Below, one piece after another: positions 54,283-56,570 of a stretch of 64,000 bases of DNA. Location: NCBI RefSeq assembly GCF_003853705.1, contig NZ_QTQI01000034.1, forward strand, positions 1-64,000. The letters run 5' to 3'. The translations under genes and the position numbers were made by a program. Positions within the stretch are counted from its first letter, which is position 1. Each line of letters opens with the position of its first letter. The stretch is from Burkholderia sp. Bp8992 (GTDB taxonomy: Bacteria > Pseudomonadota > Gammaproteobacteria > Burkholderiales > Burkholderiaceae). The notes below the pieces were generated by a model. It searched no databases. It saw only the letters and a list, made by a program, of their open reading frames with translations, and had not been told where the DNA came from.

Positions 54283-55281
54283 TCAGCGCCCCGGCAACCG
54301 GCGCTCGTAGCTCGGCGCATGGCCGAACTGCGCGCGGTAGGCCTTGCTGAAATGACACGGCGAATGAAAGCCGCAGACCGTCGTCACGCGTGCGATCGAC
54401 GCGTCGGTCGTGCGCAGCAGGTCGCGCGCGCGTTTCAGGCGCAGTGTCAGGTAATAGTGGGTCGGCGACACGTTCAGATATACCTTGAACATCCGCTGCA
54501 GGTGCCGCTGCGACAATCGCACGAGCCGCGCGAGTTCCTCGAGCGACAGCGGCTCTTCGATGTTCGCCTCCATCAGCCGCACGACCTCGATCAGCTCGGC
54601 GCGCGAGAAGCCGACGCGCGCATCGACCGGAATCGGCTGCGTGTCGGTCGAGCTGCGGATGCGCTCCAGGATGAACTGTTCGGACACCTGCGCGGCCAGC
54701 TGCTGGCCGAAGCGCATGCCGACGAGGTTCAGCATCAGGTCGAGCGGCGCGGTGCCGCCGGTACAGGTCAGCCGGTCGCGGTCGACGACGAACAGCTCGT
54801 CGGCGAAGCCGACCTGCGGAAACTCGGCATGCAGCGAGGACAGGTTCTCCCAGTGCACGGTGCAGCGATAGCCGTCGAGCAGCCCGCTCGACATCAGCGC
54901 GTACGCACCCGTGCAGATGCCGCCGAGCGGCAGCCCGCGTTCGGCGAGCGCCGCGAGCGTATCGCGCGCGCCTTCGTCGACCACGTCGCGGATGCGGATG
55001 CCGCCGCACACGATCATCACGTCGGGCAGGTTCTCGTAGTCGAGCGCCTGCGTGGGCCGCACCGCGATGCCGTTGCTGGCATGCGCGGGCGCGCCGTCGA
55101 GCGAGTAGATCGACCACTTGTAGTGGTCGGCACGCCCCACGTAGTTCGCCATCCGAAGCACCTCGACCGCGCTCGAGAACGCGATCATCGAGAAGTTCGG
55201 CAGCGTCAGGAAGCCGAAATGGGCAAGGGACGAAACCGGTGAAACGCAGGCGGCGGGCGCAACAGCGACGGCGGACGTCAC
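54283..55281 (-). CDS. gbdR: GATase/DJ-1-type AraC regulator, GbdR-like
   Basis: A 332-residue regulator with an N-terminal DJ-1/PfpI domain (GGICTGAYALMSSGLLDGYRC contains the elbow) and a C-terminal AraC domain (LARLVRLSQRHLQRMFKVY, then VTTVCGFHSPCHFSKAYR). GbdR in Pseudomonas senses glycine betaine and dimethylglycine and activates choline/betaine uptake and catabolism. Lying inside the cho locus, this protein is its likely activator. The start is a GTG with AGGAG 6 nt upstream; that ribosome site overlaps the end of the inserted palindromic element. Confidence 0.88.
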   Translation of the reverse strand: MTSAVAVAPAACVSPVSSLAHFGFLTLPNFSMIAFSSAVEVLRMANYVGRADHYKWSIYSLDGAPAHASNGIAVRPTQALDYENLPDVMIVCGGIRIRDVVDEGARDTLAALAERGLPLGGICTGAYALMSSGLLDGYRCTVHWENLSSLHAEFPQVGFADELFVVDRDRLTCTGGTAPLDLMLNLVGMRFGQQLAAQVSEQFILERIRSSTDTQPIPVDARVGFSRAELIEVVRLMEANIEEPLSLEELARLVRLSQRHLQRMFKVYLNVSPTHYYLTLRLKRARDLLRTTDASIARVTTVCGFHSPCHFSKAYRAQFGHAPSYERRLPGR

Positions 55282-55287
55282 ATCGGT

Positions 55288-55292
55288 CTCCT
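55288..55292 (-). promoter_or_regulatory. Ribosome site of the gbdR-like gene overlapping the element boundary
   Basis: AGGAG on the minus strand is 6 nt before GTG 55281. Its first two bases belong to the CTAG at the edge of the palindromic element. The element therefore sits directly against translation initiation and moves any native promoter 289 bp away. Confidence 0.7.
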
Positions 55293-55579
55293 AGGGTCTG
55301 TTTCCAGATGGAACGCACATGCGTTGCCACGAGAACGGCCGCTCGCGAGGCGCGCGACGCCGCGAATACTTGGCGTATCGCCAAGGAGCGCAACGCGGCG
55401 AGCGGCCGTTCTCGTGGCAACCCCAAACTTGAAATTTATTCCACGGGAATGCCCGAAATCGCCCGCATGGCGGCGTCGCTCGTCGCTTGTTTGGCCCGGC
55501 CAAACGGCGCTCCTCACTTCTTGCCCTGCGAGCGATTTCGGGCATTCGCATGTGCGTTCCATCTGGAAACAGACCCTAG
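55291..55579. mobile_element. MITE-like palindromic element (289 bp, no coding capacity)
   Basis: Bases 55291-55323 and 55547-55579 are perfect 33-bp inverted repeats. The outermost 4 bp on both sides are CTAG, and symmetry stops exactly there, which fits a target duplication of the YTAR type used by IS5-family elements. Inside are two further hairpin domains of 99 nt each: 55323-55421 (24-bp perfect arms, centre CTTGGCG-tat-CGCCAAG) and 55448-55546 (15-bp perfect arms, imperfect interior, central GTTTGGCC palindrome). An AT-rich spacer at 55422-55447 joins them. One strand could fold into a three-way junction. No transposase is present. It lies between choW and the regulator gene. Confidence 0.85.
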
Positions 55580-55673: not shown

Positions 55674-56570
55674 TCAGGCCTGTGCGGGTGCCGCCTTCAC
55701 GCGAAAGAGCTGCTTGAGACCGGCGAACAGCGGCGCCTTCACGGTGCCCGGCGCGCGGCCGAAGCTTTCGGTGATGCGGTCGAGAATGATCGCGAGCAGC
55801 ACGACCGACAGACCGCTTTCGAAACCGAGGCCGATGTCGAGTCGCTGGATACTCGCGAGCACGTCGTTGCCGAGACCGCCCGCGCCGACCATCGACGCGA
55901 TGATCACCATCGACAGCGCCATCATGATCGTCTGGTTCACGCCCTGCATGATCGACGGCAGCGCATTCGGGAACTGCACCTTGTACAGCAGCTGCCACGG
56001 CGTGCAGCCGAACGCCTGGCCGGCTTCGACGATCTCGCGGTTCACGTGGCGGATGCCGAGGCTCGTCAGGCGCACGGCCGGCGGCATCGCGAAGATCACC
56101 GTCGACAGGATCCCCGGCACGCGGCCGAGACCGAACAGCATCGCGGCCGGAATCAGGTAGACGAAGGCCGGCATCGTCTGCATCAGGTCGAGGATCGGAC
56201 GCACGATCGCGGCGACCCACTTGCTCTTCGCAGCCCAGATGCCGAGCGGAATGCCGAGCACGAGGCTGATGATCGTCGACGACAACGTGAGGCCGAGCGT
56301 GATGACGGTCTGATCCCAGAAGCCCGTCGCGAAGATCAGCAGCAGCGACGCCGTGGTGAACAGCGCGAAGCGCCAGCCCACCCGCCATAGCCCGACGCCG
56401 ATGAAAATCGCCATCATCAGCCACATCGGGATCGCCTGCAGGCCATGCTCGACGAATGCGGCGAGCCCTTCGATCGCCTGACCGATCGCGTCGAACGTCT
56501 TCGCGTCATGGTCGAGCAGGTAGTGAACGGACTGGTCGACCCAGCTACCGAGCGGAATCATTTCAGACAT
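55674..56570 (-). CDS. choW: Choline ABC transporter permease
   Basis: A 298-residue permease of the ProW/ChoW type. An N-terminal amphipathic/hydrophilic region (LGSWVDQSVHYLLDHDAKTF) is followed by six or more membrane spans and the EAA loop EAGQAFGCTPWQLLYKVQFP. Its start overlaps the choV end by 8 nt, so the two subunits are translationally coupled. Substrate choline is inferred from choV/choX. Confidence 0.92.
   Translation of the reverse strand: MSEMIPLGSWVDQSVHYLLDHDAKTFDAIGQAIEGLAAFVEHGLQAIPMWLMMAIFIGVGLWRVGWRFALFTTASLLLIFATGFWDQTVITLGLTLSSTIISLVLGIPLGIWAAKSKWVAAIVRPILDLMQTMPAFVYLIPAAMLFGLGRVPGILSTVIFAMPPAVRLTSLGIRHVNREIVEAGQAFGCTPWQLLYKVQFPNALPSIMQGVNQTIMMALSMVIIASMVGAGGLGNDVLASIQRLDIGLGFESGLSVVLLAIILDRITESFGRAPGTVKAPLFAGLKQLFRVKAAPAQA

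What the first reader, a model, noticed from the sequence alone, without database searches (positions are those of the whole stretch)
55291..55579. 289-bp MITE-like element with three nested palindromes forming a potential three-way junction
The sequence shows perfect 33-bp terminal inverted repeats including CTAG at both edges, plus two internal 99-nt hairpin domains separated by an AT-rich spacer. Most MITEs have only terminal repeats; two equal-sized internal hairpins give a Y-shaped fold if transcribed or extruded. This suggests a repeat family maintained for structure, possibly acting as RNA (terminator, processing site or small RNA). The CTAG edges fit IS5-type target choice, so mobilisation by a resident IS5-family transposase is plausible.
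Basis: partly seen in the sequence, partly recalled or inferred. Interest (0 to 1): 0.75.

Follow-up and report, generated by a model that had tools for sequence, protein, structure and literature searches.

The report
Hairpin-rich mobile repeat of Burkholderia
This 289-base palindromic stretch is one copy of a mobile DNA repeat family of Burkholderia and its relatives, which keeps the same folded shape even where much of its stem sequence has been replaced, so it offers a good test of how such folds are kept.

Summary
It is one copy of a non-autonomous transposable element (MITE) with matches in 62 of 65 genomes of the genus and 7 of 25 genera sampled in the family. Its ends match an ~826-bp IS5-family, IS427-type insertion sequence. 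The window site is uninterrupted in 60 of 65 genomes. At a second site the empty allele is a single CTAG in 20 of 20 loci inspected, so insertion duplicates TA. Two identical copies at different places in one genome suggest recent movement.

Stem sequences differ between subfamilies, yet in 25 aligned copies 95.4% of pair cells stay paired and 42 of 89 pairs show double changes (0 of 500 shuffles). Loop motifs are conserved. Mismatches are about as often A.C as G.T, which points to pairing kept as DNA (arm-to-arm correction) rather than as RNA. Copies often abut stop codons. Between co-directed genes the window's subfamily lies in one orientation (42 to 6). That is unexplained and suggests selection on transcripts. 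No transcript and no movement was observed directly.

The parts
55291..55579 (+). whole element as first described: CTAG...CTAG, 289 nt
   Evidence: full-length relatives
55292..55293 (.). left TA of the inferred target duplication
   Evidence: duplication inferred from flanks of 135 copies and the empty site of locus L168
55577..55578 (.). right TA of the inferred target duplication
55294..55323 (+). P1, left arm of the terminal inverted repeat; first bases GGGTCTGTTT match the IS427-type IS ends
55547..55576 (-). P1, right arm of the terminal inverted repeat
55324..55346 (+). P2 (hairpin 1 stem), 5' arm
55347..55397 (+). loop of hairpin 1 with an inner hairpin; motif region conserved across subfamilies
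55398..55420 (-). P2 (hairpin 1 stem), 3' arm
55422..55447 (+). AT-rich spacer that starts CCC and ends GGG (possible 3-pair stem P4)
55448..55466 (+). P3 (hairpin 2 stem), 5' arm
55467..55527 (+). loop of hairpin 2 with inner hairpin 55489-55505; resembles the reverse complement of loop 1
55528..55546 (-). P3 (hairpin 2 stem), 3' arm
54283..55281 (-). downstream neighbour: DJ-1/PfpI + AraC-type regulator; the element ends 9 nt before its called start
55674..56570 (-). upstream neighbour: ABC transporter permease; 94 nt between its stop and the element

Best explanation
The element is a non-autonomous transposable element (MITE) moved in trans by an IS5-family, IS427-type transposase that recognises its GGGTCTGTTYACAT ends. 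It inserts at YTAR (best CTAG) and duplicates TA. Because its first base is G, an insertion into a TAG or TAA stop codon leaves TA+G, again a stop, so neighbouring genes keep their ends; this explains why many copies sit at gene ends and inside gene clusters. Inside the ends it carries two hairpins of about 100 nt, the second looking like a diverged inverted copy of the first, around an AT-rich spacer. The stems are kept paired mainly at the DNA level, most likely by template-switch (quasipalindrome) correction in which one arm is recopied from the other during replication; the loop motifs are kept by sequence constraint of unknown cause. Where a copy lies between co-directed genes it is presumably read into the mRNA, and subfamily 1 is kept there in one orientation, which suggests selection on the transcript. 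SHOWN: family, copies, empty sites, end match, covariation, mismatch types, orientation bias. INFERRED: mobilisation in trans, template switching, transcript-level selection.
For: Copies: 62 of 65 genus genomes match; 135 full-length copies, 87 with TA on both sides, 37 of them CTA/TAG and 23 TTA/TAA. TTA...TAA sites exclude a 4-nt CTAG duplication. Empty sites: window site 60 of 65 contiguous, 5 split; site of L168 61 of 65 contiguous, 4 split, single CTAG in 20 of 20 shown. Recent movement: L168 and L173, identical over 287 nt, different contigs and flanks in one genome; L173 lies in a LysR-type gene that is uninterrupted in relatives. IS partner: two overlapping frames, DUF4096 + DDE_Tnp_1, TA-flanked, ends GGGTCTGTTYACATT; published IS427-group elements are 832-865 bp with 12-21 bp ends, mostly 2-bp duplications and often two overlapping ORFs (PMC3281130, passages). 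Pairing: 42 of 89 pairs with double changes, 0 of 500 shuffles; at shared sites 110 of 1777 stem pairs compensatory, 91 single, mismatches G.T 35, A.C 30, other 45. Template switching as a way to fix stems: PMC8794818 (abstract). Stop codons: 36 of 107 gene 3' ends lie -4..0 nt from the element edge. Orientation: 42 to 6, and 24 to 0 when the stop is within 10 nt.
Against: No transposition and no RNA was measured. An IS with these ends was found in 7 of 65 genomes and a close transposase in 7 of 65, partly in genomes poor in the MITE (G022, G065); no such end was found at the transposase loci fetched from G038, the genome with identical copies. The end match is only ~14 bp. Double changes at shared sites could partly be conversion from other copies; two clusters (L299, L100) with very diverged flanks supply 44 of the 110. 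The window site's empty allele is not a clean CTAG (CTCCTGGCG in 23 of 30 loci shown), and L173's right flank is TG. One pair (27-263) has G.T in 49 of 136 copies against one A.C, as RNA pairing would predict. DNA-level correction alone does not explain conserved loops or the orientation bias. At shared sites the element is no more conserved than its flanks (medians 0.050 vs 0.049 and 0.063).
Confidence: 0.68

Rival explanations
1. Structured-RNA element: the fold is kept because the transcript acts in cis in operons and leaders (processing site, antiterminator or insulator against polarity), with the loops as contact sites.
For: Covariation in all outer stems; conserved loops while stems change; orientation bias 42 to 6 between co-directed genes and 24 to 0 at abutting stops; between divergent genes the same tendency against the nearest start, 16 to 7; the favoured orientation of subfamily 1 gives a U-rich spacer in 40 of 48 sites; 49 of 136 copies carry G.T at pair 27-263.
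Against: Outside that one pair, stem mismatches are G.T 61 and A.C 71 in P1+P2+P3, and 35 to 30 at shared sites; RNA selection predicts an excess of G.U on one strand. Subfamily 2 with the same architecture shows no orientation bias (14 to 23, p 0.19), and its spacer composition does not follow orientation (p 0.27). No Rfam match at gathering score.
Confidence: 0.25
2. Functional DNA fold: hairpins or a cruciform extruded from the duplex are recognised by the transposase or a host protein through the paired inverted loop motifs, so selection keeps the DNA pairing.
For: Strand-symmetric mismatches; loop motifs in inverted, symmetric positions at equal distance from both ends, hairpins of equal modal length 101 nt in subfamily 2; 220 of 221 distinct copies fold with the two hairpins.
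Against: Copies without hairpin 1 (L048, L102, L103, L105) exist between intact ends, so hairpin 1 is not needed in every copy. The symmetry of loop 1 and loop 2 rests on 49% ungapped identity. No binding protein is known.
Confidence: 0.2
3. Ordinary conserved leader or terminator of this locus, not mobile.
For: It lies 9 nt before the called start of a regulator gene and is present at the same place in 5 other genomes.
Against: Absent from this place in 60 of 65 genomes and present at 146 distinct sites elsewhere.
Confidence: 0.01
4. A small protein gene: open frames run through the element.
For: At least one frame without stops in 78 of 135 (opposite strand) and 107 of 135 (same strand) copies, against 237 of 2000 shuffled ones.
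Against: Lengths differ by single bases; the frame from the inner ATG is interrupted in 70 of 135 copies on either strand and that ATG is missing in 39 and 43; the orientation favoured in operons is the less open one.
Confidence: 0.03

Closest known systems
IS5 family, IS427 group insertion sequences and MITEs derived from them
   Same: Terminal GGGTCTGTTYACAT, TA duplication, insertion at CTAG/YTAR; partner IS of ~826 bp with two overlapping frames, DUF4096 + DDE_Tnp_1; lengths, end sizes and 2-bp duplications agree with published IS427 members (PMC3281130, passages).
   Different: Perfect inverted repeats of ~33 bp instead of ~14, two further hairpins, loops unrelated to the IS by eye, and many carriers without a detected partner.
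Bacterial MITEs and small repeats in general (ERIC/RU, Correia/NEMIS, QMITEs, BOX/RUP)
   Same: Short, non-coding, dispersed, with stable predicted folds (review PMC10969869, passages; the named families otherwise recalled).
   Different: Four-helix architecture kept across genera with much of the stem sequence replaced; hairpin 2 resembles an inverted hairpin 1; strict orientation between co-directed genes in one subfamily.
BRE, the Beta-proteobacterial repeat element
   Same: Repeat of Betaproteobacteria, usually intergenic (PMC3110155, passages).
   Different: About 90 bp or less and described from Bordetella; no sequence comparison was made here.
REP/REPIN elements with RAYT transposases
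   Same: Palindromic non-autonomous repeats (recalled; listing only).
   Different: Here IS5-type ends with a TA duplication; no RAYT search was made.

Membership tests
MITE (non-autonomous transposable element) | terminal inverted repeats | tested here: met
   33-bp perfect arms
MITE (non-autonomous transposable element) | short, without its own transposase | tested here: met
   289 nt; no conserved frame
MITE (non-autonomous transposable element) | dispersed copies with different flanks | tested here: met
   146 distinct sites after clustering by flanks
MITE (non-autonomous transposable element) | target duplication and empty sites | tested here: met
   TA...TA in 87 of 135 copies; single CTAG in 20 of 20 empty loci at site L168
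MITE (non-autonomous transposable element) | movement by a transposase in trans | not testable with these tools
   only sequence available
Derivative of an IS427-group (IS5 family) IS | ends matching an autonomous IS | tested here: met
   GGGTCTGTTYACAT shared with IS in L057/L106/L113/L373
Derivative of an IS427-group (IS5 family) IS | partner encodes an IS5-type DDE transposase | tested here: met
   DUF4096 E 9e-29 and DDE_Tnp_1 E 7e-5 on a 149-aa piece
Derivative of an IS427-group (IS5 family) IS | partner present in carriers | tested here: inconclusive
   end pattern in 7 of 65 genomes; own genome not held
Derivative of an IS427-group (IS5 family) IS | interior derived from the IS | not tested
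   no alignment of interior to IS was run
Known Rfam structured RNA | covariance-model score above gathering | tested here: not met
   0 matches over the window; best local E 0.003 at 28 bits against a cut-off of 83
Functional structured RNA (as a kind) | G.U tolerated over A.C in stems | tested here: not met
   61 vs 71 without pair 27-263; 110 vs 72 with it; 35 vs 30 at shared sites
REPIN/REP-RAYT | RAYT tyrosine transposase | not tested
   no search made

The most novel reading that the evidence does not exclude
A Burkholderiaceae-wide mobile element built as an inverted dimer of a hairpin module, whose four-helix fold and loop motifs have outlasted much of its stem sequence across genera, and which is tolerated inside operons in one orientation because its transcript (or its extruded DNA) performs a job such as shielding downstream genes from polarity. 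That would be a self-preserving 'operon-safe' MITE: a stop-codon-regenerating target choice plus a protective fold.
Probability: 0.22. Interest if true: 0.8.

Novelty: new variant of a known kind. Interest (0 to 1): 0.6.

Why it matters
Covarying stems are normally taken as proof of a functional RNA. Here many stems covary strongly in a mobile DNA element with almost no G.U bias, so the family is a natural test of how far DNA-level arm correction alone can produce 'RNA-like' covariation. It also offers a testable reason why a MITE can live at stop codons and inside operons, and an unexplained orientation rule that reporters can settle. For annotation, it identifies a repeat of the Burkholderia cepacia group and relatives that no held Rfam model names.

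Tried and rejected
Coding element: rejected as main reading, although open frames are commoner than in shuffles. Known RNA family: none at gathering score. Intrinsic terminator: one terminator-like hit in the region against 0.8 expected. Four-nt CTAG duplication: rejected because 23 copies are TTA...TAA. Orientation rule by spacer strand composition: fits subfamily 1 but not subfamily 2. Stronger conservation of the element than its flanks at shared sites: not seen. Annotated neighbours from the plasmid collection: four records opened, no features listed in the stretches, so contexts rest on my own codon-usage gene caller, which cannot see genes split by an insertion (L173 is one) and places starts roughly. 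Rows dropped: 6 of 263 elements for short flanks, then 8 of 146 sites as too near a contig end and 6 without a called neighbour. First attempt at an inverted-repeat scan of transposase loci used most of its time limit and gave mostly chance pairs beside the real ones. Literature: nine paper searches; eight looked for this or similar elements and their listings named none in Burkholderia; that covers open-licence PubMed Central only, and I saw listings plus passages of six papers (passages; abstract and opening text).

Full report
WHAT IS THERE. The stretch 55291-55579 has perfect 33-bp terminal arms and two inner hairpins of about 100 nt around an AT-rich spacer. Both strands, as RNA and (for +) as DNA, fold far better than 200 shuffles. 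It lies between two genes on the - strand: an ABC permease (stop 94 nt away) and a DJ-1/AraC-type regulator (called start 9 nt away), beside an ABC ATPase and an OpuAC-type substrate-binding protein.

IT IS A REPEAT FAMILY. A search of 65 genomes of the genus found matches in 62. Five genomes searched more deeply held 14-35 matching stretches each, secondary self-matches included. In the family, 60 of 299 sampled genomes in 7 of 25 genera matched at E <= 1e-6, with at most two candidates scored per genome, so this is a lower bound. In a collection of 84,980 species an exact loop-2 pattern gave 114 stretches; all 80 listed titles are Burkholderia or Paraburkholderia.

IT MOVES, OR DID. Of 135 full-length copies in the loci then held, 87 have TA on both sides; 37 are CTA/TAG and 23 TTA/TAA. 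The window site is uninterrupted in 60 of 65 genomes and split in five; where the junction could be displayed the empty allele reads CTCCTGGCG (23 of 30 loci), so that site no longer shows a clean CTAG. A second site (L168) is split in four genomes and contiguous in 61, and all 20 empty loci printed carry one CTAG where the occupied allele has C-TA-element-TA-G. In one genome two copies at different places are identical over 287 nt; one of them interrupts a LysR-type gene that is uninterrupted in relatives. Its right flank is TG rather than TA.

THE LIKELY MOVER. Two of 30 DUF4096 loci fetched carry the same end sequence. The complete IS is flanked by TA, about 826 bp between the TAs, begins and ends GGGTCTGTTYACATT, and has two overlapping frames with DUF4096 and DDE_Tnp_1. 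Published IS427-group members have similar length, end size, 2-bp duplications and two overlapping frames (PMC3281130, passages). The end pattern occurs in 7 of 65 genomes, a close transposase in 7 of 65. In G038, which has the identical copies, no matching end was seen at the transposase loci fetched. So mobilisation by this kind of IS is inferred from ends and target, not shown, and in most carriers the source may be gone or undetected.

ARCHITECTURE. 220 of 221 distinct copies fold with two hairpins on the terminal stem. Subfamily 2 and more distant relatives in other genera have other terminal, P2 and P3 stem sequences but the same plan. In 66 copies with two hairpins of exactly 101 nt, hairpin 1 and the reverse complement of hairpin 2 agree without gaps at 49% in the loop region and 36% in the stems; for one pair, 5000 shuffles had mean 28% and maximum 50.8% (observed 49.2%). 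I read hairpin 2 as a diverged inverted copy of hairpin 1; this is suggestive, not proven. Variants lack hairpin 1 (L048, L102, L103, L105), have shortened loops (L055, L099), or carry a 27-nt module on one arm or both arms of P3 (L014, L047, L105, L044).

PAIRING IS KEPT, AND HOW. In 25 copies from several subfamilies, 95.4% of cells in 89 named pairs are standard pairs (shuffled mean 82.5%; slid structures 29-39%), and 42 pairs show a change on both sides (0 of 500 shuffles; slid 10-17). The structure was drawn from these sequences, and shuffles do not respect relatedness, so this is strong but not a formal probability. Within 136 distinct subfamily-1 type sequences, P1+P2+P3 hold 9484 Watson-Crick cells against 110 G.T and 72 A.C; leaving out pair 27-263 (49 G.T, 1 A.C) the counts are 61 and 71. 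At 25 sites shared between genomes, 110 of 1777 stem pairs show compensatory states and 91 single ones, with mismatches G.T 35, A.C 30, other 45. Two clusters with very diverged flanks (L299, L100) supply 44 of the 110; without them 66 remain. Independent substitution at about 5% divergence would give only a pair or two by my own arithmetic. The near symmetry of G.T and A.C argues for correction or selection at the DNA level. Template switching is a published way to keep stems perfect (PMC8794818, abstract); conversion from other copies is also possible. At 24 shared sites the element diverges as its flanks do (medians 0.049 left, 0.050 element, 0.063 right), so no extra conservation is seen.

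WHERE IT SITS. 263 elements in the loci gave 257 with flanks and 146 distinct sites; 132 could be classed: 85 tandem, 36 divergent, 11 convergent. Of 107 gene 3' ends facing the element, 36 lie at -4..0 nt from its edge: the target YTAR is often a stop codon, and TA plus the element's G gives TAG again. In tandem contexts subfamily 1 is opposite to the genes in 42 of 48 sites (two-sided binomial p 1e-7) and in 24 of 24 where the upstream stop is within 10 nt; subfamily 2 shows 14 opposite and 23 same (p 0.19). Between divergent genes subfamily 1 shows 16 opposite and 7 same relative to the nearest start. The favoured orientation gives a U-rich spacer in 40 of 48 subfamily-1 sites, but subfamily 2 does not follow spacer composition. 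The cause is open; selection on the transcript is my best guess. Gene positions come from my own caller trained on the window.

VERDICT. A new, well-defined MITE family of a known kind (IS5/IS427-type), with an unusual conserved fold, a probable DNA-level upkeep of pairing, conserved loops of unknown role and an unexplained orientation rule. I found no description of it in the searches listed, which cover open-licence papers only.

Noticed in passing
L086 1-2601 and L087 1-2601 (G011): An IS110-family transposase element (PF01548 + PF02371) sits at the same point of the hairpin-2 loop (after GCGCTCC) in two copies at different places; L104 carries only its first ~20 nt there. It may target this loop.
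   Followed up: partly
L382, L386, L391 and counterparts in G007, G011, G041, G043: Three DUF4096 (IS5-type DNA-binding domain) genes recur in all five genomes opened, two of them ~27 kb apart; the two of the three kinds translated and scanned (150 and 360 aa) gave no DDE hit at E <= 0.001, and at least 3 DUF4096 matches occur in 65 of 65 genus genomes. They look like domesticated transposase domains.
   Followed up: partly
L014, L044, L047, L105 (hairpin 2): A 27-nt module (GTCCCCCAAGGGGACTTCCTTCGGGGC or its complement) occurs on the 5' arm, the 3' arm or both arms of P3, as if stem extensions were gained or lost arm by arm.
   Followed up: no
L237 (G093): A 1.7-Mb genome of the same family carries a copy with quite different stems but the same plan and loop motifs.
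   Followed up: no
L360, L361 (IMG/VR): Two viral contigs contain the loop-2 pattern; whether the copy is in phage or flanking host DNA was not checked.
   Followed up: no
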